This document shows positions 20,636 through 32,572 of a stretch of 64,000 bases of DNA, one piece after another; position 1 is the stretch's first letter, and each line of letters opens with the position of its first letter. Source of the stretch: Stieleria neptunia (lineage in GTDB: Bacteria; Planctomycetota; Planctomycetia; Pirellulales; Pirellulaceae); assembly GCF_007754155.1 (NCBI RefSeq), contig NZ_CP037423.1:3968001-4032000 (forward strand), given 5' to 3'. The position numbers and the translations under genes were made by a program. Under the pieces are notes generated by a model. The model did no database searches. It had not been told where the DNA came from and saw only the letters and a program-made list of their open reading frames with translations.

Positions 20636-23440
20636 CTAATGCGCTTCCAACCAGTTCTTTCCTGTTCCCATTTCGACGACGATCGGGACCGTCATCGGCA
20701 GCGCGGTTTTCATGGCGTTCTCAATGACCGGCAGCACGTCATCCTGTTCCGCTTTCCATAAATCAAACACCAACTCGTCATGCACCGTCAGCAGCATCTT
20801 GGTTTGGAAGCCGCCCTCGCGTAGCGCCCGGTGGACTTTGACCATCGCCAGTTTCAGCATATCGGCCGCGGTGCCTTGGATCGGGCTGTTCATCGCCAGG
20901 CGTTCGGCTGCCGATGCGCTGCCACGTGACTTGCTGGTGATGTCTCGGACGTAACGTCTGCGTCCGGTCTTGGTCACCACATAGCCGTGTTCTTTTGCAA
21001 ACGCGATCGTCTCGTCGATGTAACGCTGGACGCCGGGGTATTTTTCAAAGTAGTTTTTGATCAACTCGCCCGCTTCGGCGCGGGGGATGTTCAGTCGTTG
21101 TTGCAGCCCGAATGCGCTGATGCCGTAGATGATGCCGAAGTTCACAGTTTTGGCTTTGGCACGCATTTCCCGCGTCACGTCATCGAGTTCAACCTTGTAA
21201 ACCTTGGATGCCGTCACGGTGTGAATGTCTTCACCGCCCACGAACGCGGCGATCATCGATTCGTCGCCGCTCAATTCCGCCATGATCCTCAGTTCGATTT
21301 GTGAGTAGTCGGCCGACAGGATCAAATGGTTGTCGTCGCGGGGGACGAATGCCGCACGGATTTCTCGTCCGCGTTCCTTCCGCACCGGAATCGTTTGCAG
21401 GTTGGGGTCGTTGGACTGCATCCGGCCGGTTGCCGTCCACGTCTGGCTGTAGTGGGTGTGCAGCCGTCCGGTTTCCGGGTGGACCGCCGCGGGCAACTGG
21501 TCCACGTACGTCGATTTCAATTTACGTGCGTTGCGATAGTCCAACACGTCGCGGATGATGGCGTGTTTACCGGACAGCCGTTCCAATTCGGCTTCGCGGG
21601 TCGAGTATTGCCCGGTCGCGGTCTTCTTGGGTTTTTCTTCCAGTTCCAGCTCTTCGAACAAGACGACGCCCAGTTGTTTGGGGGAGTCGACGTTGAATTC
21701 GTGGCCGGCCGCGGAAAAAATCCTCGCCTGCAAGTCATCGATTTCGGCTTGCAGGACTTCGGAGTATTTCGCCAGTGAGTCGGTGTCCAGCGTGATGCCG
21801 TTGTATTCCATGTCGACCAAAACGGGCACCAATGGGCATTCGACTTCGTCGCAGACTTGCTGCACGCCGCGCTGGATCGCCATCGGCTGCAAAATCTTGG
21901 CGATTTGCAGGGTGACGTCGGCGTCTTCGCAGGCGTATTCGGCCAGTTTTTCCAGCGGGACGTCCGCCATGTTTTTCTGCTCGTCGCCTTTGGGGCCGAT
22001 CAGCTCCGACGTCGGAATCGGCTTGTAATTCAAGTACAACTCCGACAGCGAATCCAGCCCGTGTCGCATCTCCGGTTCGGTCATCGTGTGGACCAGCATC
22101 GTGTCCACCAACGGCGCGCGGACTTCGATGCCGTTCCACTTCAGCAGCGAGATGTCGTACTTCAGATTGTGTCCGATTTTCGTGACCGATTCGTCGGCAA
22201 ATAAATCGGCGAACTCCGCCAGCATCACCGACCGTTCGTCCGCGTCCTCGGGGCAGACGACGTAGTACGCTTCATGCGGTTTGATGCTGATCGCGATGCC
22301 CAGCGGGACGGCCGTGCGGGGATCCAGTCCGGTGGTTTCGGTATCGAAGCAGAATGTTTTCGCTTCGGCCAGTCGCTTGATCAGCTTGGTGCGTTCTTGC
22401 TTGGTCGTCACCGTGTGATAGGTGTGTGCGACTTCGTGGATCGATGTTTCGTCCGACGGTTCATCGAACAGCGATTGTTGGATTTGTGTTTCGCGTTTTT
22501 CGCGGGCGACGGCGGATCGGGCCGACGCGACCGAGAACGACTTGCCGAAGACTCGCTTGCCGATCGTTTCGAATTCCAACTCGGTCAACAGCTCGCGCAG
22601 TTTTTGGTCGTCACGTTTTTGGCGGGCCAAGGCATTGATGTCGATCTCGGTCGGCACATCCAACAAGATGGTGACCAAGCGTTTGGACAGCAGGGCTAGC
22701 TCGGCGTTTTCCTGGACGCGTTCCTTCTGTTTGCCCTTCAGTTTGTCGGCGTTTTCGAGCACACCTTCGATGCTGCCGTATTCGGCGATTAGCTTCTTGG
22801 CGGTCTTGGGACCGATGCCAGGGATTCCGGGGATGTTGTCACTGGAGTCGCCCATCAGCCCGAGCACGTCGATGACTTGTTCGACACGCTGGATCTCCCA
22901 TTGCTCGCAGACCTCCTTGACCCCCAGGATTTCCGACTCGCCACCCTTGCGTCCCGGCTTGTAGACGTGGATCTGGTCGGTGACCAATTGGTGATAATCT
23001 TTGTCGGGCGTGACCATCCAGGTTTCGAATCCTTGGTCGGACGCCTGGTGGGCCAGGGTGCCGATCACATCGTCCGCTTCGTAACCGGGCATGCGGATCG
23101 TTTTGATATTCAACGCATCAAACAGTTTGTCGATCCAGGGCAGTTGGCTGGCCAAGTCCTCCGGCATCGCGTCGCGCTGGGCCTTGTACTCCGGGTAATC
23201 GATGTGCCGCTGGGTGGGTTCGGAGGTGTCGAAGGCGCAGGCAATGTGCGTCGGTTCCTCCTTGGTCAGGATGTCGGTGATGGCATTGAGCATCCCGAAC
23301 ACGGCGGAGGTGCATTGGCCGCCGGAGGTGAATCGCGGGCTGCGGATGAGCGCGAAATGGGCCCGGTAGGTCAACGCCATGCCGTCCAGCAGGAACAGCT
23401 TTTTGGTCGGCGAGAAGAGGTTGGGAGTGTCGTCGGCCAT
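20636..23440 (-). CDS. polA: DNA polymerase I
   Basis: 934 aa from ATG at 23440 (MADDTPNLFSP); the upstream extension reaches into a palindromic repeat and is rejected. Three enzymatic parts are present. The 5'-3' exonuclease: LFLLDGMALTYRAHFA, AFDTSEPTQRH, GYEADDVIGTLA, MGDSSDNIPGIPGIGPKTA. The proofreading 3'-5' exonuclease keeps DTETTG and GHNLKYD, so it should be active. The polymerase: motif A DYSQIELRIMAELSGD, motif B AKTVNFGIIYGIS, motif C TVHDELVF. It fills Okazaki and repair gaps. Full length for the family. Confidence 0.98.
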   Translation of the reverse strand: MADDTPNLFSPTKKLFLLDGMALTYRAHFALIRSPRFTSGGQCTSAVFGMLNAITDILTKEEPTHIACAFDTSEPTQRHIDYPEYKAQRDAMPEDLASQLPWIDKLFDALNIKTIRMPGYEADDVIGTLAHQASDQGFETWMVTPDKDYHQLVTDQIHVYKPGRKGGESEILGVKEVCEQWEIQRVEQVIDVLGLMGDSSDNIPGIPGIGPKTAKKLIAEYGSIEGVLENADKLKGKQKERVQENAELALLSKRLVTILLDVPTEIDINALARQKRDDQKLRELLTELEFETIGKRVFGKSFSVASARSAVAREKRETQIQQSLFDEPSDETSIHEVAHTYHTVTTKQERTKLIKRLAEAKTFCFDTETTGLDPRTAVPLGIAISIKPHEAYYVVCPEDADERSVMLAEFADLFADESVTKIGHNLKYDISLLKWNGIEVRAPLVDTMLVHTMTEPEMRHGLDSLSELYLNYKPIPTSELIGPKGDEQKNMADVPLEKLAEYACEDADVTLQIAKILQPMAIQRGVQQVCDEVECPLVPVLVDMEYNGITLDTDSLAKYSEVLQAEIDDLQARIFSAAGHEFNVDSPKQLGVVLFEELELEEKPKKTATGQYSTREAELERLSGKHAIIRDVLDYRNARKLKSTYVDQLPAAVHPETGRLHTHYSQTWTATGRMQSNDPNLQTIPVRKERGREIRAAFVPRDDNHLILSADYSQIELRIMAELSGDESMIAAFVGGEDIHTVTASKVYKVELDDVTREMRAKAKTVNFGIIYGISAFGLQQRLNIPRAEAGELIKNYFEKYPGVQRYIDETIAFAKEHGYVVTKTGRRRYVRDITSKSRGSASAAERLAMNSPIQGTAADMLKLAMVKVHRALREGGFQTKMLLTVHDELVFDLWKAEQDDVLPVIENAMKTALPMTVPIVVEMGTGKNWLEAH

Positions 23441-23544
23441 GCGAGCGGTTGGTTGAGAAGAGCGTGGTAAAAGTGAGAATGTACGCTGGCGGGGCGTCCT
23501 TCGATAGATCTTGTCGACGTCGTCGAGCAACGGAGAAGTCATGG

Positions 23545-23607
23545 GGGAAATAGGACCAATGCGACAGATACGACCCATGAGTCCTATTTGTCACATTGGT
23601 CCTATTG
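23545..23607. repeat. Family-D palindrome (ATAGGACCAATG type)
   Basis: Imperfect inverted repeat (AAATAGGACCAATGCGACAG with its complement ending ATTGGTCCTATT), upstream of polA in the approximately 400-bp spacer to the SPFH gene. Four further copies flank the 16S genes (34713, 35072, 38686, 38823). The rest of this spacer shows nothing I can name. Confidence 0.8.
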
Positions 23608-23837: not shown

Positions 23838-24950
23838 ATGGGATTGTTTGACAGGTTGCGCCACGAACTGATCGACATCATTGAGTGGATCGACGACTCC
23901 AATCATACGTTGGTTTGGCGGTTTCCCAGGTACAACAACGAAATCAAAAACGGGGCGCAGTTGATCGTGCGTCCGGGCCAGATGGCGGTTTTGGTCAGCG
24001 GCGGAGAGATCGCCGACACGTATGGTCCCGGGCACTACGAGCTCGAAACCAAAAACATGCCGATCCTGTCGACGTTGCAGGGTTGGAAATATGGGTTCGA
24101 AAGCCCCTTCAAAGCCGAAGTGTATTTCGTCAGCACCAAGCAGATCACCGATCTGAAATGGGGAACGCCAAACCCCGTGATGTTGCGTGATCCCGAATTC
24201 GGTCCGATCCGAATCCGCGCCTTCGGAACGTACGCCTTGCAAGCGGTCGAGCCGAAAGCGTTGTTGAGGGAGATTGTCGGAACCGATGACGATTTTCAAT
24301 CCGACGAAATCACCGATTTGATGCGGGCGATGATCACCTCGGCCTTCACGCAGGCACTGGCGGACCTGCAGATCCCCGCGCTCGATTTGGCCTCTCGCTA
24401 TCAGGAACTCGGCGACACCATCCGGGCTCGGGTGGTCGAACAGATCGATGACGAGTACGGGTTGGATTGCCCGCAGTTGTTCGTTGTCAATATTTCGTTG
24501 CCCGAAGCGGTCGAAAAGGCGCTCGACACGCGGACCAGCATGGGCGTGATCGGCGACATGAACAAGTTCCAGCAATACCAGATGGGCAACGCGATGACGG
24601 AGGCGGCGAAAAACTCGTCCGGCGGTGGCGCTGCCGAAGGCATGGGTTTGGGGATGGGCATGGCGATGGCCGGTCGCATGATGGGCGGCGCGATGGGAGC
24701 GGCACCCGCGGCAGGCCCCGCGGCGGCACCCCCGCCTCCACCGGCAGCTTGGCACGTCGCCGTCGCCGGGCAAACCAAAGGCCCTTTCTCCCTCGCACAA
24801 CTCTCCAGCGGGATCGCATCGGGCGAAGTCACCAAAGACACGATGGTCTGGACCGCGGGGATGGAAGCCTGGGCCGCCGCCGCGGCGGTGCCGGCGCTGG
24901 CAGGGTTGTTCGTTTCGCAAGCTCCACCGCCGCCGCCACCACCGATGTAA
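23838..24950 (+). CDS. SPFH domain protein with C-terminal GYF_2-like domain
   Basis: 370 aa. Residues about 1-245 match the SPFH (Band 7) branch often called virion core protein-like or YdjI: MGLFDRLRHELIDIIEW, LIVRPGQMAVLVSGGEIADTYGPG, RIRAFGTYALQ, LQIPALDLASRYQELG and GLDCPQLFVVNISLPEAVEKALDT. A Gly/Met/Ala/Pro-rich linker leads to WHVAVAGQTKGPFSLAQLSSG...DTMVWTAGMEAW, a GYF_2-type module that probably binds proline-rich peptides; the chain itself ends in poly-Pro. There is no transmembrane helix, so membrane contact would be peripheral. It precedes the polyamine operon after a 166-bp spacer that holds a repeat, so a separate promoter is possible. Confidence 0.9.
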   Translation: MGLFDRLRHELIDIIEWIDDSNHTLVWRFPRYNNEIKNGAQLIVRPGQMAVLVSGGEIADTYGPGHYELETKNMPILSTLQGWKYGFESPFKAEVYFVSTKQITDLKWGTPNPVMLRDPEFGPIRIRAFGTYALQAVEPKALLREIVGTDDDFQSDEITDLMRAMITSAFTQALADLQIPALDLASRYQELGDTIRARVVEQIDDEYGLDCPQLFVVNISLPEAVEKALDTRTSMGVIGDMNKFQQYQMGNAMTEAAKNSSGGGAAEGMGLGMGMAMAGRMMGGAMGAAPAAGPAAAPPPPPAAWHVAVAGQTKGPFSLAQLSSGIASGEVTKDTMVWTAGMEAWAAAAAVPALAGLFVSQAPPPPPPPM

Positions 24951-24956
24951 GTCACC

Positions 24957-25078
24957 CTCGTTCCCAGGCTCCGCCTGGGAACGGAATGGACGTGAGGCTC
25001 TGCCTCACGCGGTAAAAAGAACGTCGGAGGCGGAGCCTCCGGAACCTTGCGTCCCCAGGCGGAGCCCGGGAACGAGGA
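24957..25078. repeat. Family-E palindromic element (CTCGTTCCCAGGCTCCGCCT type)
   Basis: The outer ends CTCGTTCCCAGGC and GCCCGGGAACGAG are inverted. Inside lie GGCTCCGCCTGGGAACG, GTGAGGCTCTGCCTCAC and GGAGGCGGAGCCTCC hairpins. It sits between the SPFH gene and the polyamine operon and may uncouple their transcription. Confidence 0.8.
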
Positions 25079-25116
25079 TGTGGTGGATAATCGACCAATG
25101 AGGAAATTGAACTGAA

Positions 25117-25527
25117 GTGGACGAACCACAGCAACGTTCTGAGCCGCTCGCCGGATTCACCGGGGGGACGGAATGGATGATCGATGCCTCGGGCTGCGCG
25201 CCTGATGCGTTGCGGGATTTGCAGCGAGTCGAAACGCTCTGTCAGCGGGTGGTTGCAGACCTGGGGTTGACTCTCGTCGGCCGACCGATGTGTCATGCCT
25301 TTCCCGGCCCCGGCGGTGTGACGGCGCTGTACCTGTTGAGCGAATCCCACTTGGCCTGTCACACCTATCCCGAACACGAATTCGCCACCTTCAACTTGTA
25401 TTGCTGCCGTCGGCGACCCGCTTGGCCTTGGCGACAGGAACTGGAACGAATGTTTGAAGCCCGCGATGTCGTGGTGCGGCAGTTGAATCGTGATCTTCGA
25501 TTGACGCGGAAGGAATCGCTGCGATGA
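25117..25527 (+). CDS. speD: S-adenosylmethionine decarboxylase family protein
   Basis: 136 aa from GTG at 25117. It should make decarboxylated AdoMet, the aminopropyl donor for polyamine synthesis. The prokaryotic class-1 (SpeH) active-site block is clear: LLSESHLACHTYPEHEFATF. The Glu-Ser bond before Ser77 is where self-cleavage would create the pyruvoyl group; the His of HTYPE and the Cys of NLYCC match the conserved proton-donor positions. Size fits the short family. It is first of six overlapping or abutting genes, overlapping the DUF4178 gene by ATGA. A spermidine-synthase domain protein four genes downstream is the expected partner. Confidence 0.9.
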   Translation: MDEPQQRSEPLAGFTGGTEWMIDASGCAPDALRDLQRVETLCQRVVADLGLTLVGRPMCHAFPGPGGVTALYLLSESHLACHTYPEHEFATFNLYCCRRRPAWPWRQELERMFEARDVVVRQLNRDLRLTRKESLR

Positions 25528-27077
25528 GGCATGTGAACACGAACTGCCCGGCCTGCGGTGGCCCGGTGGAATTCATCACGGGTTCGTCGCTGGTCACGGT
25601 CTGTGAATTCTGTCACACGGCGGTCGGACGCGGCGATCGGGATGTCAAGGACTATGGCAAAGTCGCCGAGGTCGGTGATCCGGCTTCGGGGTTGGCCCGC
25701 GGGATCACCGGCAAGTGGAACAAGAAATCATTCACGATCACTGGCCGTGTCCGCTACCGCCACTCCGGCGGCGGATCTTGGGACGAATGGTACTTGGCCT
25801 TTCCCGGTGATCGTTGGGGCTGGCTGGCCGAGGCTCAGGGTAAATTTTCGTTGACGATGCAGCGAAAGTTGACCGACAAGTCTCGTTTGCCGGATTACAA
25901 CAGCATCCAGCTGGAGCAGAAGATCACACTCAAGGGTGTCGAGCTGACGGTCCGCGAAAAGGGCGTCGCGGTGGCCGAAGGGGCCGAAGGGGAATTGCCT
26001 TGGGAATTCCACCCGGGCGCCGACCATCTGTATGTGGATTTGTACGGCGCGAACAAAGCGGTCGCGACGTTTGAATACGGCGACGGCAGCGATGATGCCC
26101 AGCAGTCGGCCTACTTGGGCAGCGAAGTCACGCTCGACGAGCTCGGTATCAGGCTCGATTCGTTGGACCCCGACGCCGGCAAGGTTCGTGTGGATTCGCT
26201 GCAATTAAATTGCCCCAAGTGCGGCGGGACACTGGCGCTGCGAGCTCCCGATGAAACACTGCGGGTCGCTTGCCCGAACTGCACATCGATCTTGGACGCC
26301 AAAGACGGAAAACTGGCGTTGCTGCAAACGCTGCATCAGAAGAAAGTCAGGCCGCTGATACCGCTCGGCAGCGTCGGCGACTTCGGCGGCAAACAATACA
26401 CCGTCATCGGCTTCATGGAACGCTACGCCAAGTACGCCGGCCGAACGTATCCGTGGACCGAATACCTGTTGTACAACCGCGAAACCGGATTTCGTTGGCT
26501 GGTCTGCAACGACAACCATTGGTCCCTCGTCGCTCCGGTCGACTCGCCGCCCAGTTCGATCGCGGATTCAGCGACGTACGACGGAGAAACCTTCAAAATC
26601 TACGATCGTGGAACGGCCTACGTCCGCTACGTGTTGGGCGAGTTTTATTGGAAGGTCACCGTCGGCGAGCTGGTCTACACGTCCGACTACATCGCGCCGC
26701 CACGGATGCTTTCGTGGGAACGAAGCGGTTACGGGAAATCGCAAGAAGTCACGATTTCCGAGGGGCACTACATCACCGCCGAGGAGGTCGAACAGGCGTT
26801 TGGCGTCAAGGACTTGCCACGTCCTTGGGGCGTCGGGGTGATCCAACCGCGGCCGACACCGGGGGCGAAATTTTGGCTCGCCTGGCTGGGCTTCTTGTTC
26901 TACCTGTTTTTCGCCTATGCCGTGATCGGTCGCGGCAAGGCCGACGGATGGCTGTTGTTCTATGCCTTGGTGGGCGTCACGCTGGTCCCGGCGGTGGTGA
27001 TGGCTTATTTGCACAACTTTGAAGTGCGGCGTTGGAAAGACAGTGATTTCAGCCCTTACGCATCCTCGGATGATTAA
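25524..27077 (+). CDS. DUF4178 protein with two zinc ribbons and C-terminal membrane segments
   Basis: 517 aa; its ATG overlaps the speD stop. Layout: zinc ribbon CPACGGPVEF...CEFC (about 8-31); first DUF4178-like domain (about 50-140, FTITGRVRYRHSGGGSWDEWYLAF, DRWGWLAEAQGKF); a second zinc ribbon CPKCGGTLAL...ACPNC (about 230-258); a second DUF4178 domain (about 285-410, YTVIGFMERYAKYAGRTYPWTEYLLY, GFRWLVCNDNHWSLV); and two hydrophobic C-terminal segments (LAWLGFLFYLFFAYAVIG, WLLFYALVGVTLVPAVVM). Biochemical role unknown. From general knowledge, DUF4178 genes commonly sit beside DUF350 and polyamine genes, as here. It is probably inner-membrane anchored with the domains facing the cytoplasm. 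Confidence 0.88.
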   Translation: MRHVNTNCPACGGPVEFITGSSLVTVCEFCHTAVGRGDRDVKDYGKVAEVGDPASGLARGITGKWNKKSFTITGRVRYRHSGGGSWDEWYLAFPGDRWGWLAEAQGKFSLTMQRKLTDKSRLPDYNSIQLEQKITLKGVELTVREKGVAVAEGAEGELPWEFHPGADHLYVDLYGANKAVATFEYGDGSDDAQQSAYLGSEVTLDELGIRLDSLDPDAGKVRVDSLQLNCPKCGGTLALRAPDETLRVACPNCTSILDAKDGKLALLQTLHQKKVRPLIPLGSVGDFGGKQYTVIGFMERYAKYAGRTYPWTEYLLYNRETGFRWLVCNDNHWSLVAPVDSPPSSIADSATYDGETFKIYDRGTAYVRYVLGEFYWKVTVGELVYTSDYIAPPRMLSWERSGYGKSQEVTISEGHYITAEEVEQAFGVKDLPRPWGVGVIQPRPTPGAKFWLAWLGFLFYLFFAYAVIGRGKADGWLLFYALVGVTLVPAVVMAYLHNFEVRRWKDSDFSPYASSDD

Positions 27078-27272
27078 ATGAAAAAAACAGTGATGGTCGT
27101 GTATCTGACCATGGGGTTCGTGATTTGCGGTTGGTTCACCGCCGCTGCAGCATTCAGCTGGAGGGCGCCCAATTTCGGGATCGCCAAGGCGCTGCAAAGT
27201 AGCGGTTCTGGCGGTGGCGGTTACTACGGCGGCGGTCGTTCGTTCGGTGGTTCATGGGGAGGAGGAAAATAA
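27078..27272 (+). CDS. Small membrane protein with Gly-rich tail
   Basis: 64 aa. The ATG directly follows the preceding TAA. One hydrophobic N-terminal segment (VVYLTMGFVICGWFTAAAAF) is either a signal anchor or a cleaved signal, followed by a tail of Gly, Tyr and Ser (GGGGYYGGGRSFGGSWGGGK). No family recognised. The tight spacing on both sides (0 and 1 bp) argues that it is a genuine member of the polyamine operon. Confidence 0.8.
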   Translation: MKKTVMVVYLTMGFVICGWFTAAAAFSWRAPNFGIAKALQSSGSGGGGYYGGGRSFGGSWGGGK

Positions 27273-27273
27273 C

Positions 27274-27564
27274 ATGGAGATGACTTCGATGAAAGTTTTT
27301 CAATTAGCGATGCCGTTAGCGCAAGACGTGCAAGACATGGCGGTCAGCCCGATGCAGTTGCTGGGCGCCCATCTGATTGCCGCCGTGGTTTTCTCGCTCG
27401 TCGGGATCGTGGTGTTCGGCTTGTGTCTGTTGTTGATGGAAAAGATCACCCCGTTTTCGATCGTTCATGAGATCGGCGAAGAGCACAATCAGGCCTTGGC
27501 GACGATCGTCGCTGCGATCGTGTTGGGCATCTCGATCATCATCGCCGCTGCGATTCTGGGATGA
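27274..27564 (+). CDS. DUF350 (YjfL-like) membrane protein
   Basis: 96 aa from ATG at 27274, with GGAGGA directly upstream; an in-frame ATG at 27289 is possible. Two hydrophobic helices ([39 protein letters not shown]) flank the polar segment [19 protein letters not shown], which is the DUF350 signature. It probably sits in the inner membrane as a small multimeric component of unknown function. The stop overlaps the next start by ATGA. Confidence 0.9.
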
Positions 27565-29096
27565 TCGACCGCGCGCCGAACTACTTGCTCTATTTGAACG
27601 TGCTGGTCATCGCGACGTGCGGGTTGATCTACGAGCTGTTGGCGGGCACGTTGGCGAGTTATCTGTTGGGCGACAGCGTGACCCAGTTCTCGCTGGTGAT
27701 CGGCGTGTACTTGTCGGCGCTCGGCGTCGGTTCGTGGCTTTCCCGCTACGTCGAAAACCGAGTGGCGCGGACCTTTATCGAGATCGAAATCGCCTTGGCG
27801 CTGGTGGGCGGACTTTCGGCGCCGTTGCTGTTCGTCGCGTTCGCCCAGATCACTTGGTTCCGGATTTCCTTGTTCGGATCCGTTTTCGCCATCGGAACGC
27901 TGGTCGGGCTGGAGTTGCCGCTGTTGATGCGGATTTTGCGCGAACACTTGGACTTTCGCGAACTCGTCGCACGCGTGCTGACGTTCGATTACATCGGGGC
28001 GTTGTTGGCGTCGGTGCTGTTTCCTGTTTTGCTGGTGCCGCGTTTGGGGCTGGTCCGGACGTCGTTGCTGTTCGGGATTCTCAATGCCGTCGTCGGGGTC
28101 TGGGGGACGTATCTGTTGCGGCCGCTGCTTTCCAGTCGCGGACTCGGCGCGTTGCGGGGGCGCGGGTTCCTGGTGATCGGATTGCTGGTGGTAGCGTTCA
28201 TCAAAGCCGACACGCTGACCGACTGGACCGAAGAAGCGATTTTGGAGAACCCGATCGTCTATTCGACGCAGTCGGATTTTCAGCGAATCGTGGTGACGCA
28301 GCGGCAGGGCCATTTTCAATTGCACCTCAACGGTCACCTGCAATTCAATTCCAAGGACGAGTATCGCTATCACGAATCATTGGTGCACCCGGCGTTGACG
28401 ATCGCCGATGAAGCCGAGCATGTTTTGGTGCTCGGCGGTGGAGACGGATTGGCGGTGCGAGAGATCCTGCGCTACGACCGTGTGAAAGCCGTCACGCTGG
28501 TGGATTTAGATCCGGCGATGACCGGCTTGGCCACCGATTTTCCACCCCTGGCCGAACTGAACGAACACGCCTTGGCAGACCCGCGGGTGACCGTCGTCAA
28601 TCGAGATGCCTTTGTTTGGGCAGGCGAGGGCGAAACAAAATTTGATGTGGCGGTGATCGATTTTCCCGACCCGGGGTCTTACTCGGTTGGGAAGTTGTAC
28701 ACGACGCGGTTTTTTCAACTGCTCCGGCGTCGACTGACCGATTCGGCGATCGTCTCGATTCAGTGCACGTCGCCGTTGGTGGCGCCGAAGTCCTATTGGT
28801 GCATCTTGAACACCATGCAACAGGCCGGGTTCGATGTGCGTCCGTATCACGCCGCGGTACCATCGTTCGGCGTTTGGGGGTTCGCGCTAGCCGGGATGCA
28901 ACCGTTGACGGCTGACACCGATGGCGGGTTTCCGATTCGCCATCCGCTGCCCGCTGGCTTGCGTTTTCTGGATTCGAAAACCATGGTCGCGATGTTTCAG
29001 ATGCCCGCCGACTTGGTTCCGGCCCAGACGAGTGTCAATCGCCTGAACGATCAGGTGTTGGTTCGTTACTATGAACAAGAATGGGGGGCGATGTGA
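27561..29096 (+). CDS. Membrane-anchored spermidine synthase-like fusion protein
   Basis: 511 aa; its ATG overlaps the DUF350 stop. The first 215 residues hold about six or seven membrane helices ([59 protein letters not shown]). From about 235 the chain is a Rossmann-fold aminopropyltransferase: [29 protein letters not shown] (AdoMet/dcAdoMet site), [28 protein letters not shown] in the position of the catalytic DxxDP loop, and [13 protein letters not shown]. The catalytic loop differs from classical SpeE (DFPDPGS rather than D-S/T-D-P), as is usual in membrane-fused members, so the amine acceptor may differ from putrescine. Confidence 0.9.
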
Positions 29097-30730
29097 GTGA
29101 TGTGCATGCCCATCGCCCGGATCGGCTGACACGTCGCGAATTGTTGGCCTACCTCGCCGGCGTTCCGCTGACCGGCTTGGTGGGGTGCGGTTTCCGCGAT
29201 CGGATTTCGTTTGAGGGACAGTTACTGAGTCCCGATGTTTCGATCGGGCATCGGTTGCGAGACGGCTGGCGACCGCCCGAGCCGACCGAATCGCCACGAT
29301 CGCATCGTGTGGTGATCGTCGGCGGCGGCATCGCGGGCTTGTCGGCTGCCTGGCAATTGCAGCGTCGCGGGATCGAGGATTTCGTGGTCTTGGAGTTGGA
29401 GGGGCAGCCGGGGGGAACGTCGTTGAGCGGGGATCGGGCAGGCTTCCGATTTCCCTGGGGCGCCCATTACGTCCCGGCACCGATGAAAGAAAACGAAGCG
29501 TTGGTCGAGCTGTTTGGTGAGCTGGGGGCGATCGTCGCCGTGGCGGAGGATGGCGAGCCCGTTTTTGCCGAACACGCGCTCTGCCGAGAACCCGAGGAAC
29601 GCGTGTTCTTTCAGGGGCGGTGGATCGGTGGGTTGTATCCACATGCCGGCGCCAGCGACGAGGATTTATCGCAGTTGGAACGTTTTCGTCAGGCCATGCG
29701 AGACTGGTCGGCGCGGCGCGATCAAGCCGGGCGACGGATGTTCGCGATTCCAATGTCGCTGGGATCCGATGGTGATGTCGTCCGCAAGCTTGACACCCTT
29801 TCGATGGACCAGTGGATGCAGTCGCAGGGGTTCACCTCCCAGCGTCTGCGCTGGCTGGTCGATTATGCTTGCCGCGATGATTATGGTTTGACCAGTCGTC
29901 AGACCAGTGCCTGGGCCGGCGTGTTTTATTTCGCGTCTCGGCTGCGACCGGGCAGTGCCCAGTCGCAGCCGGTGATCACGTGGCCGGAGGGCAACGGACG
30001 CATCGTTGGATACTTGGCCGATCGATGTGGCACCCGGCTTCGGTGCGGACATGCCGTCACGGCGATCCGCGATACCGGTGCCGAGAGAATCCAGATTCGT
30101 GCGTTTGACACGCGATCGTCGACGACGGTGGAGTTTGTTGCCGAAGACGTCGTTTTTGCCGCGCCACAGTTTTTGGCCCCCCACGTCCTGGTCGATTGGA
30201 AATCCAGCGGCCGGACGTTGACGTCGTTTCGCTATGGCGGCTGGGTGGTCGCCAATGTTTTTCTGAACGCTCGGCCACAGGAATCCGGCAGCGAAATGTG
30301 CTGGGACAACGTCATCTACGACAGTCGATCGCTGGGCTACGTTACCTCAACGCATCAGACCGGCAGCGACCATGGGCCGACGGTGTTGACCTGGTACCAG
30401 CCGATGTTGGACGATGATCCACGGGTGTCGCGGGCGGAGTTGATGCGACTTGCGTGGCGCGACTGGGCCAGCGTCGTGGTTTCGGATTTGCGCAAAGCCC
30501 ACCCGGATATCGGTTCGCTGATCGAGCGAATCGACGTGATGCGTTGGGGGCACGCGATGATTCAGCCTCGCGTGGGCTTTGTCTGGGGCGACCAGCGGCA
30601 GGCGGCGGCGCACTCGCTGGGACGCGTCCATTTTGCCGGCACCGACTTGAGCGGCGTCGCGCTGATGGAGGAGGCGTTCGACCGCGGCGTGCGGGCCGCT
30701 GATCGATGCCTGGCCTCGCCCGTGGGATAG
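29093..30730 (+). CDS. Tat-type lipoprotein FAD-dependent amine oxidase-like protein
   Basis: 545 aa from GTG at 29093 (GTGA overlap with the preceding stop); ATG at 29081 adds four residues. The N-terminus has a twin-arginine motif and lipobox in one signal: [21 protein letters not shown], so it is likely exported folded and lipidated. Residues about 70-100 hold the FAD-binding [15 protein letters not shown] and [12 protein letters not shown]. The middle ([37 protein letters not shown]) and the C-terminal FAD region ([29 protein letters not shown]) fit the flavin amine oxidase/phytoene desaturase fold. As last gene in the polyamine operon, oxidation of a polyamine or polyamine adduct is plausible but unproven. 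Confidence 0.87.
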
Positions 30731-30856: not shown

Positions 30857-31396
30857 ATGACACATCAGTTGATTTTGATGCGGCACGCAAAAAGCGATCA
30901 CGACGACCCGGCGCTGTCCGACCACGATCGCCCACTCGCCAAGCGCGGCCGCCGTGACACGCCCAGGATGGCCGATTGGCTCGACGAGCAAGGCTGCGTT
31001 CCGGACGTGATCCTCTGCTCGTCGTCGGTTCGGACGCGAGAAACGGCCGAGTTGTTGTTGGATCATTGGGACAAGAAACCCGTCGTGGTGTCCTGTGAAG
31101 ATTTGTACTTGTCCAGCCCCAACACGATGCTCGAAACCATCGGCAGCGGGCATCGTGATGCGGCCAGCGTGATGGTTTTGGCGCATAATCCAGGGACGGC
31201 GGCGCTGGCATCGATGCTGGCCAAACAGTCGCTGGAAATGGTGACGGCGGCGGTGGCGATTTTTGAAGTGGATGATTTGGCCGCGCTCGGGCAGGCGAAC
31301 GTTTCCGACCACGCACCGCTCTCGCACTTGGTGAAACATTTGGCTACACAGTGCAGTTGCAGACTCACGCACTATGCCAGCCCCAAGACCATTTGA
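30857..31396 (+). CDS. SixA-like histidine phosphatase
   Basis: 179 aa from ATG at 30857. The N-terminal MRHAKSDHDD is the RHG-type catalytic motif of the SixA branch (His10 phospho-acceptor). RPLAKRGRRDTPRMADWL, LCSSSVRTRETAELLLDHW and VLAHNPGTAALASML carry the remaining conserved Arg and His residues. It probably removes phosphate from phosphohistidine or a small phosphoester in the cytoplasm. Twelve bases separate it from the metallophosphoesterase gene, so they are probably co-transcribed. Confidence 0.88.
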   Translation: MTHQLILMRHAKSDHDDPALSDHDRPLAKRGRRDTPRMADWLDEQGCVPDVILCSSSVRTRETAELLLDHWDKKPVVVSCEDLYLSSPNTMLETIGSGHRDAASVMVLAHNPGTAALASMLAKQSLEMVTAAVAIFEVDDLAALGQANVSDHAPLSHLVKHLATQCSCRLTHYASPKTI

Positions 31397-31408
31397 CCTT
31401 GAATCTTG

Positions 31409-32572
31409 ATGTACGGATTCGCCGCCTGGCTGATTTTCGCGATGGCGCTCGTCGGTCACGGTGGGTTGCACATCGCGATCTACAATCGAGTCAATTGCCT
31501 CGGTTGGCCGCGAAAGACGATCAAGCGGATCGTGAAGTTTTTTCTGCTGACGACGCTGGCCATTCCGGCGGCGATTTTGTTTTTCCAATTCGATTCGATT
31601 GAGGCAATCCTGTTCCGTGGCGGCAGTTGGAGTCTGCTCGGCCCGGTCACGACCACGTACGGCGTCATCTGTTTGGCGACCTGGATCGTGTTCGGGGTGC
31701 CGTGGCTGTTGTGGCGCCCGATTTTTCGGCTGGAATGGGTCGAAGCGCCGCGAAAGGTCAAGGTCGTCGATGTTTCTCAGGCCGTTGAGCATCCGCTGCC
31801 GTTGACACGCAAGGCGCGTTGGGAATCCCGTCTTCCCTTCAATCAGATTTTGGATTTGGCGGTCGAAGAAGTCGACTTGCCGGTCGTCGGGTTGCCCGCT
31901 GCGCTCGATGGCTATCGGATCGCGCACTTGAGTGACATTCATCTGACCGGCGAAATCCATGCCAGCTACATTCGCTTTGCGATCGAACAGGCGACGCGGT
32001 TCCGGCCGGACTTGATCGCTCTGACCGGGGATATCATCGACACCCAGCCATGCATCGATTGGTTGGTCGAGATCTTTTCACCGGCAGAAGCCGTCGACGG
32101 TTGCTTTTTTATTCTGGGCAATCACGACACACGCGTGGTCGATTCATGGGAGACACGCAATGCGATGGACCGTGCCGGATGGATCGATCTGGGCAGTCAA
32201 ACGATGCGGCGCAACCTTCGCGGGGTGACCTGTCGCGTGATCGGCAACGAATATCCCTGGTTCGAGCGGCCGACGCTTGAGCCTTGTGACGCGCAGTTTC
32301 GATTGCTGCTCAGCCATAGTCCGGACCAGTTCACGTGGGCGCGACGCAACGGGATTGAATTGATGTTGGCCGGGCACACGCATGGCGGACAAGGGCGGCT
32401 GCCGCTTGCCGGTCCGATCCTCAGTCCCAGTTATCACGGCAGTCGTTATGCGTCTGGAGATTTCTATCGTGCGCCGACGACGTTGCACGTCACCCGAGGT
32501 CTGGGCGGGGTTCATTTGTGGCGGATCAATTGCCGCCCGGAACTCTCGCTTTTGACGTTACGATCGGTCTAA
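31409..32572 (+). CDS. Membrane metallophosphoesterase (YkuE/calcineurin-like)
   Basis: 387 aa from ATG at 31409 (TTG at 31406 is also open). Three hydrophobic N-terminal segments (MYGFAAWLIFAMALVG, FFLLTTLAIPAAILFF, VTTTYGVICLATWIVFGVPWLLW) anchor it in the membrane. The C-terminal domain has all dimetal phosphoesterase signatures in order: HLSDIHLTG, ALTGDIIDT, ILGNHDTR, LLSHSPDQF and LAGHTHGGQGRLP. Close relatives act on lipid or nucleotide phosphoesters at the membrane; the substrate here is unknown. Last protein gene before the 16S units. Confidence 0.9.
   Translation: MYGFAAWLIFAMALVGHGGLHIAIYNRVNCLGWPRKTIKRIVKFFLLTTLAIPAAILFFQFDSIEAILFRGGSWSLLGPVTTTYGVICLATWIVFGVPWLLWRPIFRLEWVEAPRKVKVVDVSQAVEHPLPLTRKARWESRLPFNQILDLAVEEVDLPVVGLPAALDGYRIAHLSDIHLTGEIHASYIRFAIEQATRFRPDLIALTGDIIDTQPCIDWLVEIFSPAEAVDGCFFILGNHDTRVVDSWETRNAMDRAGWIDLGSQTMRRNLRGVTCRVIGNEYPWFERPTLEPCDAQFRLLLSHSPDQFTWARRNGIELMLAGHTHGGQGRLPLAGPILSPSYHGSRYASGDFYRAPTTLHVTRGLGGVHLWRINCRPELSLLTLRSV

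What the first reader, a model, noticed from the sequence alone, without database searches (positions are those of the whole stretch)
23838..30730. Membrane-associated polyamine operon with SPFH, DUF4178, DUF350 and Tat-exported amine oxidase
Six genes overlap or abut (speD/DUF4178/Gly-rich mini-protein/DUF350/membrane-SpeE fusion/flavin amine oxidase), with an SPFH-GYF2 protein just before. The set has an aminopropyl donor maker, a membrane-bound aminopropyltransferase, and an exported oxidase, plus three membrane proteins of unknown role. No ornithine or arginine decarboxylase is present, so bulk spermidine synthesis is an unlikely purpose. Making or attaching polyamine-like groups at the membrane, then oxidising them outside, is a testable idea. 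DUF350/DUF4178/speD/speE neighbours are known in other bacteria; the Tat lipoprotein oxidase and the GYF2-SPFH partner add to the picture.
Basis: partly seen in the sequence, partly recalled or inferred. Interest (0 to 1): 0.85.

Follow-up and report, generated by a model that had tools for sequence, protein, structure and literature searches.

The report
Membrane polyamine operon with lysine-tailed peptide
A bacterial gene cluster that makes a polyamine building block and carries a membrane-bound enzyme to transfer it, plus an exported oxidase, also encodes a tiny protein that keeps the same last two amino acids, glycine and lysine, in its relatives, which suggests what the enzyme may be decorating.

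Summary
The operon is real and conserved. Its core (SpeD, DUF4178, DUF350, membrane-SpeE fusion) is a published kind of system with an unknown acceptor. New here: (1) The 'Gly-rich mini-protein' ends in Gly-Lys at the exact C-terminus in 120 of 120 loci located (two picks corrected by hand, one locus left out as its tail is fused to DUF4178), against 7 of 579 unrelated ORFs. Lys-ended tails also stand beside related fusions in three other settings, with misses. (2) An unnamed ten-helix membrane protein, 'c11', is a partner: next to the oxidase in many genomes, unlinked in this one; 59 of 61 c11 genomes hold the oxidase. (3) By the charge rule the SpeE domain faces outward, like the Tat-exported oxidase. 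(4) The genome has an arginine decarboxylase elsewhere, contrary to the finding, but one SpeD and one clear SpeE, both here. Best reading: the SpeE domain aminopropylates the tail protein's C-terminal lysine outside the membrane, and the oxidase then acts on it. The acceptor step is inferred; one peptide mass spectrum would test it.

The parts
23838..24950 (+). SPFH (Band_7_1) protein with C-terminal GYF_2 domain and poly-Pro end; probable cytosolic scaffold; labelled in 43 of 99 DUF4178 loci
   Evidence: Pfam PF13421 330 bits, PF14237 67.8 bits; neighbourhoods
24953..25080 (.). inverted-repeat element (54-nt arms, 81% complementary) between SPFH and speD
   Evidence: its palindromic 24-mer has 2 matches in the window at up to 2 mismatches, 0 expected
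25117..25527 (+). speD, S-adenosylmethionine decarboxylase (class 1b); the only PF02675 match in the genome
   Evidence: PF02675 86.5 bits; SESH...HTYPE...C motif with the residues named in PMC10407285
25524..27077 (+). two DUF4178 domains, Cys pairs like Zn ribbons, and two hydrophobic stretches near the C-terminus
   Evidence: PF13785 131.6 bits, two stretches; sequence
27078..27272 (+). 64-aa tail protein with one hydrophobic stretch, ending ...SWGGGK; proposed aminopropyl acceptor through the C-terminal lysine
   Evidence: 120 of 120 ORFs located at this position in relatives (this one included) end in GK
27274..27564 (+). DUF350 membrane protein (96 aa)
   Evidence: PF03994 41.8 bits
27561..29096 (+). 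7-TM + SpeE aminopropyltransferase fusion; catalytic domain predicted outside
   Evidence: NF002956 639.5 bits over cut-off 472; AF2 model and Foldseek matches to SpeE structures; K+R 9.4 vs 3.4
29081..30730 (+). FAD-dependent amine-oxidase-fold enzyme with twin-arginine signal and lipobox (FAOx)
   Evidence: PF01593 60.5 bits; the two Arg and the lipobox Cys kept in 90% or more of 14 rows

Best explanation
An extracytoplasmic protein-aminopropylation module. SpeD makes decarboxylated SAM (dcSAM) in the cytosol. The 7-TM SpeE fusion uses it, possibly passing dcSAM through its membrane part, to add an aminopropyl group to the C-terminal lysine of the small membrane-anchored tail protein (27078-27272). 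The Tat-exported lipoprotein oxidase then oxidises the added amine, and the unlinked c11 membrane protein serves the oxidation step. DUF350, DUF4178 and SPFH-GYF2 organise or sense the complex at the membrane. SHOWN: gene content, order, co-occurrence, the conserved C-terminal GK, the residue for dcSAM binding, and Tat/lipobox conservation. INFERRED: the outward face of SpeE (charge rule), dcSAM passage, lysine as acceptor, the substrate of the oxidase, and every role given to c11, DUF350, DUF4178 and SPFH.
For: Tail: 120 of 120 ORFs end in GK (110 distinct proteins, 60 distinct last-12 stretches), with both Lys codons (AAA 73, AAG 47) and all four Gly codons before it, also in loci where DUF350 begins hundreds of bases later (L011, L059, L181). 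So a Shine-Dalgarno site alone does not explain it. An aromatic residue stands at -5 in 102 of 110. Base rate: of 586 called non-module ORFs of 100 aa or more, 14 end in GK; 7 of these are by my reading tail genes themselves, leaving 7 of 579. C-terminal Lys in the other families ranges from 0 of 132 DUF350 to 9 of 130 SpeE. The tail recurs on other proteins: on DUF4178 itself (L025), and on long proteins before DUF350 in two operons with a PspA (L016, L035) and one related locus (L019); upstream of a second class of fusion in 9 of 15 loci. Six of those nine genomes have no FAOx, so the tail goes with the fusion. Topology: K+R higher on the N-terminal side in 55 of 55 fusions, 7 TM helices, so the SpeE domain is outside; a Burkholderia tail has a lipobox by eye. 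Donor: the acid of GGGDG is invariant in 55 rows; the fungal 7TM methyltransferase lacks it (PMC10349129). One SpeD and one clear SpeE in the genome. The fusion of the higher-scoring class and FAOx are in the same 66 of 241 genomes.
Against: No direct evidence of modification exists. The charge rule is undecided for the tail protein itself (1.9 vs 1.5 K+R per sequence), so its tail could be cytosolic. In 6 of 15 second-class loci I found no credible GK-ended gene in about 3 kb upstream or in the downstream stretches fetched; one 61-codon frame in L244 looks non-coding. Three of five plasmid tails end in HK or VK rather than GK. Low internal Lys in the tails (24 K to 212 R) is not special: FAOx has a similar K share. 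No dcSAM transport is shown. The oxidase has no invariant lysine in its alignment of 14, so it may not work like classical amine oxidases (that Lys is recalled).
Confidence: 0.48

Rival explanations
1. The fusion aminopropylates a lipid head group or other envelope molecule; the GK tail only binds or recruits a partner.
For: The fusion is in the membrane; bacterial relatives of such fusions are reported as not involved in spermidine or spermine synthesis (PMC12803844 passage). Tail conservation could be a docking motif with an aromatic at -5. In 13 acidobacterial loci an AMP-binding (acyl-CoA-synthetase-like) gene lies several genes downstream.
Against: A docking tag does not need a free terminal Lys in so many lineages. 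I saw no lipid gene as a constant neighbour in the planctomycete loci, but neighbours were not annotated systematically.
Confidence: 0.17
2. The fusion makes a soluble polyamine that is exported or made outside; the tail protein is a regulator and the oxidase degrades the product.
For: SpeE catalytic residues are kept; the genome has a SpeA-type decarboxylase that could feed it.
Against: The published test quoted in PMC12803844 found such fusions uninvolved in Spd/Spm synthesis; triamine could instead come from the DHS-like protein. Does not explain the GK end.
Confidence: 0.13
3. The C-terminal Lys is the substrate of the oxidase directly (lysyl-oxidase-like), with aminopropylation aimed elsewhere.
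For: FAOx is exported and is in the same 66 genomes as the higher-scoring fusion class.
Against: GK tails stand upstream of second-class fusions in six genomes without FAOx (G388, G393, G394, G397, G399, G429), so the tail follows the fusion, not the oxidase.
Confidence: 0.1
4. The 7TM-SpeE protein is a methyltransferase like the fungal NHMT, acting on a protein terminus.
For: Same layout of 7 TM plus SpeE-like domain, acting on secreted proteins (PMC10349129 passages).
Against: The acidic donor residue is invariant here, absent there, and speD is in the operon.
Confidence: 0.05
5. The GK end is a by-product of the Shine-Dalgarno site of DUF350 (GGAGGA...).
For: In the window the last codons read GGA GGA GGA AAA just before DUF350; GGA is the commonest penultimate codon, 51 of 120.
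Against: All four Gly codons and both Lys codons occur; the end is kept when DUF350 is far away, and on proteins not followed by DUF350.
Confidence: 0.04

Closest known systems
AdoMetDC with membrane-SpdSyn fusion and DUF350 clusters (Li et al. 2019, Biochem J; not held; content recalled, one result quoted in PMC12803844)
   Same: SpeD, membrane-SpeE fusion and DUF350 together; fusion not for spermidine; acceptor unknown
   Different: I could not read it, so whether it noted the tail or c11 is unknown; neither is in the passages that I saw elsewhere
PspA-CesT/Tir operon with SpeE fusion, DUF350, DUF4178 and a lipoprotein (Ravi et al. 2024, PMC11237479; passages seen)
   Same: SpeE fusion, DUF350 and DUF4178; in two PspA-bearing loci read here the long protein before DUF350 ends in GK
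   Different: No PspA among the seven proteins here; SPFH-GYF2, SpeD, FAOx and distant c11 instead. In the passages seen, AdoMetDC, polyamine oxidase and a band-7 replacement are given for variants of its ATP-grasp group
E. coli YgiB-YgiC and YjfM-YjfC (DUF1190 protein with peptide--spermidine ligase; Pederick et al. 2023, seen only in reference lists and as RefSeq gene names)
   Same: A protein with a Gly-rich end beside a polyamine-attaching enzyme; in the yjf locus also DUF350 (YjfL) and PspA-family YjfJ
   Different: Ends are GG, not GK; the enzyme is an ATP-grasp ligase, not SpeE
Fungal NHMT (PMC10349129; passages seen)
   Same: 7 TM + SpeE-like domain modifying the end of secreted proteins
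   Different: Methyl transfer to an N-terminal His; lacks the GxG(D/E)G acid

Membership tests
class 1b AdoMetDC (SpeD) | Ser, His, Cys for processing and catalysis; Pro said to separate AdoMetDC from SpeDA | tested here: met
   SESHLACHTYPE...CC; criteria from PMC10407285 section 7; which Pro is meant is my reading, the figure is not held
polyamine aminopropyltransferase NF002956 (PRK03612) | score over curated cut-off | tested here: met
   639.5 bits, cut-off 472
spermidine synthase TIGR00417 (speE) | score over curated cut-off | tested here: not met
   126.7 bits, cut-off 249.55
NHMT-type 7TM methyltransferase | no acidic residue in GxG(D/E)G | tested here: not met
   D295 of GGGDG invariant in 55 rows
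Ravi group two operon (CesT/Tir-PspA + SpeE fusion) | SpeE fusion, DUF350, DUF4178 present | tested here: met
Ravi group two operon (CesT/Tir-PspA + SpeE fusion) | PspA in the operon | tested here: not met
   no PspA_IM30 match among the seven proteins, though that model finds PspA in L016 and L035
Ravi group two operon (CesT/Tir-PspA + SpeE fusion) | CesT/Tir protein in the operon | tested here: inconclusive
   none among the seven, but the candidate CesT-type protein of L016 had no Pfam match over cut-off either
ATP-grasp peptide-spermidine ligase system (YgiC/YjfC) | ATP-grasp ligase in the operon | tested here: not met
   none among the seven proteins
flavin amine oxidase PF01593 | score over Pfam cut-off | tested here: met
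   60.5 bits, cut-off 19.8
polyamine oxidase | oxidises a polyamine | not testable with these tools
   PDB polyamine oxidases match only around the FAD-binding N-part
known fold for c11 | clear structural match in the PDB | tested here: inconclusive

The most novel reading that the evidence does not exclude
Bacteria carry a dedicated route for protein polyaminylation outside the cytoplasm: tails ending in GK are aminopropylated on the terminal lysine by 7TM-SpeE enzymes, tails ending in GG (YgiB, YjfM) are joined to spermidine by ATP-grasp ligases, and in Planctomycetota and Acidobacteriota an exported oxidase with c11 turns the added amine into an aldehyde that links the tail to the envelope, much as lysyl oxidase links collagen and elastin.
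Probability: 0.22. Interest if true: 0.92.

Novelty: new variant of a known kind. Interest (0 to 1): 0.73.

Why it matters
A conserved C-terminal lysine on the neighbouring small protein gives a concrete, cheap test. If right, it is a new post-translational modification that joins polyamine chemistry with envelope-stress proteins (SPFH, PspA) and explains why dcSAM is made in a genome without a normal spermidine synthase.

Tried and rejected
SpeD as a neofunctionalised ornithine/arginine decarboxylase: disfavoured by the HTYPE proline and the catalytic residues. In one search my strict motif pattern missed 29 of 99 SpeD rows of the relatives, which I did not inspect further. Methyltransferase reading: disfavoured by D295. 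Lys depletion in the tails as support: dropped, because FAOx has nearly the same K/(K+R). Fold of c11: high-confidence model, no usable PDB match; a profile search of PDB sequences gave one match at E 0.27. Promoter scan found none (1.7 on average in shuffles); terminator-like sites are more than in shuffles (20 vs 8.9) but lie mostly inside genes; no operon boundary is claimed. Phage and virus collections were not searched. Literature: ten searches. DUF4178 occurs in one held paper; 'lysine' and 'glycine-rich' occur 0 times in its main text. Its supplements and Li et al. 2019 were not readable, so I cannot say that the tail or c11 is unpublished, only that these searches did not show it.

Limits of the counts. 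Fisher p values ignore kinship. Genus counts are 20, 18 and 16 of 68 for DUF4178, FAOx and c11, each set inside the former by my reading of the lists. The split of fusions into a higher- and a lower-scoring class was made by me after seeing the scores. Of the 16 lower-class places there, 15 were read for tails; the 16th (G370) lies in a DUF4178 locus whose tail ends AGK. Tail ORFs were picked by richness in G, Y, W, F, S, R over the last 25 residues, not by K: 118 of 121 ended in K; L009 and L011 were wrong picks replaced by hand, and L025 was left out because its tail is fused to DUF4178. The 120 come from 82 unnamed-genome loci and 38 named ones; some are the same species twice, hence 110 distinct. 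Loci without a DUF4178-DUF350 pair were not counted. Plasmids: 10 records matched, 5 read; the Gemmatirosa and Ensifer tail ORFs were listed with a filter that favoured GK ends, the Novosphingobium one is annotated, Tritonibacter and Burkholderia were picked by eye.
Full report
WHAT IS THERE. The seven genes are as described. Six overlap or abut; SPFH-GYF2 is 166 nt upstream, with a palindromic element between. The genome is one contig of 10.98 Mb; the nearest named homologues of c11 and of the fusion are from Stieleria (the species itself was not tested).

CONSERVATION. DUF4178 is in 67 of 241 genomes of the family and 32 of 294 of the phylum sample. I read 99 loci from all 98 of these genomes. 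The usual order in Pirellulaceae is SPFH, SpeD, DUF4178, tail protein, DUF350, SpeE fusion, FAOx; counts per family are. Four phylum loci (L022, L033, L036, L038) hold DUF4178 in another setting without SpeE.

A MISSING PARTNER. Directly behind FAOx many loci carry a membrane protein of about 365 aa, here called c11; its cluster is present in 30 of the 99 loci. Two members had no Pfam match above cut-off and one had no NCBIfam match; the 120 best homologues listed, of 4620 found, are 'hypothetical' or unnamed. Four His are invariant in 80 rows (H65, H120, H250, H334); a fifth, H163, is invariant in 10 rows only. AlphaFold gives ten long helices at mean pLDDT 90 (the modelled sequence is from a Rhodopirellula record 94% identical to this genome's copy), with no significant PDB match. 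In the window's genome it lies at 7.314 Mb with no other module gene beside it. In 80 named c11 loci FAOx lies on the same strand in 58, less than 150 nt upstream in 42, and 22 show no FAOx.

CO-OCCURRENCE. In 241 genomes: DUF4178 67, FAOx 66, c11 61, SpeE fusion 79, of which 13 hold only a lower-scoring class. The other 66 are exactly the FAOx genomes. c11 and FAOx share 59; c11 without FAOx 2; FAOx without c11 7. All four are in 57 genomes, at least one in 70. In the phylum sample c11 is in 18, FAOx in 24, shared 17; DUF4178 and FAOx share 20, with 12 DUF4178 genomes lacking FAOx and 4 the reverse. In six g258 genomes (G442-G445, G447, G453) DUF4178 cluster, fusion, FAOx and c11 lie in separate places, yet all are present. 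One same-genus genome, G507, lacks all four at the thresholds used. Much of this follows descent, so p values are only indicative.

THE TAIL. The protein between DUF4178 and DUF350 diverges strongly but ends in GK in 120 of 120 loci located, of 121 examined (the remaining one carries the tail on DUF4178). Consensus: aromatic at -5 (102 of 110), G at -3 (89) and -4 (73) in most, G at -2 and K at -1 in all 110 distinct proteins. Controls: the other families show 0 to 9 terminal Lys each; called ORFs outside the module end in GK in 14 of 586, of which 7 are tail genes by my reading. A Shine-Dalgarno origin is unlikely, because codons vary and the end persists far from DUF350. In two loci with a PspA (L016, L035; Pfam) and one related locus (L019), long proteins before DUF350 end GGK, GGGK and GGK. 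Upstream of the second class of fusion, 9 of 15 loci carry a protein ending FGK or LGK; six do not. Of ten plasmid records with the fusion I read five, one per genus: each has a small ORF ending in Lys, GK in two. In E. coli K-12, YjfM and YgiB end in GG beside genes annotated peptide--spermidine ligase.

TOPOLOGY AND CHEMISTRY. The fusion has seven TM helices then a SpeE fold (pLDDT 87; Foldseek E 1e-16 to Thermus SpeE). K+R average 9.4 on the N-terminal side and 3.4 on the other, in the same sense in 55 of 55 sequences, so the catalytic domain should be outside. The tail protein's own charge pattern is undecided, but a Burkholderia version has a lipobox by eye. FAOx keeps twin arginines and a lipobox Cys in at least 90% of 14 rows. 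The donor residue D295 is invariant in 55 rows; its absence marks the fungal methyltransferase. SpeD keeps the AdoMetDC residues.

METABOLIC SETTING. The genome holds one SpeD, one clear SpeE plus one weak 24.7-bit match that is over the Pfam cut-off and was not followed, a SpeA-type arginine decarboxylase and one deoxyhypusine-synthase-like protein, the type called SpeY in PMC10407285 (passage). So no other clear aminopropyltransferase uses the dcSAM made here.

PRIOR WORK. PMC12803844 says that bacterial homologues of a fungal membrane-APT fusion were shown to be uninvolved in Spd or Spm synthesis, citing Li et al. 2019 (passage; that paper is not held). PMC11237479 (passages) describes SpeE fusion, DUF350, DUF4178 and a lipoprotein with PspA, and suggests 'aminopropylation of other substrates'. 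So the system type is known; the tail end and c11 are what this work adds, as far as the searches show.

VERDICT. A known kind of operon in a new variant, with a sequence-level clue to its unknown acceptor. The mechanism beyond the clue is inference.

Noticed in passing
window 24953-25080: Palindromic element with 54-nt arms between SPFH and speD; looks like a small repeat element and could end the SPFH transcript.
   Followed up: partly
window 20636-23578 (-) and 30857-32572 (+): Neighbours are DNA polymerase I and, downstream, a histidine phosphatase and a calcineurin-like phosphoesterase (Pfam); this downstream pair (c51, c52) follows FAOx in 6 of the 99 loci, where c11 stands in others.
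   Followed up: partly
L135, L227, L229-L232, L234-L236: Second class of 7TM-SpeE fusion, with a Ser-rich protein ending GK directly upstream; in L135 a UvrA-like gene follows (Pfam).
   Followed up: partly
L223-L226, L228, L233: Six second-class fusions with no credible GK-ended ORF in the stretches fetched; where their tail gene is, if any, is unknown.
   Followed up: partly
L022, L033, L036, L038: DUF4178 in a different conserved cluster of several genes without SpeE.
   Followed up: no
L025 1807-3408: The Gly/Ser tail ending GK is fused to the C-terminus of DUF4178 instead of being a separate protein.
   Followed up: yes
L190, L205, L213 and 15 other loci: A lipoprotein-like gene of about 200 aa (a6, no Pfam match for one member) follows c11 in 18 of the 33 mostly acidobacterial loci that I clustered.
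   Followed up: partly
L185 18093-19955 and 12 other loci: An AMP-binding (acyl-CoA-synthetase-like) gene, a11, lies some genes downstream of the module in 13 of those 33 loci.
   Followed up: no
L061 8856-9908; same cluster in L103, L105, L016, L035: An ion channel with an RCK-like domain (Pfam for the L061 copy) follows the module, as reported for related operons.
   Followed up: partly
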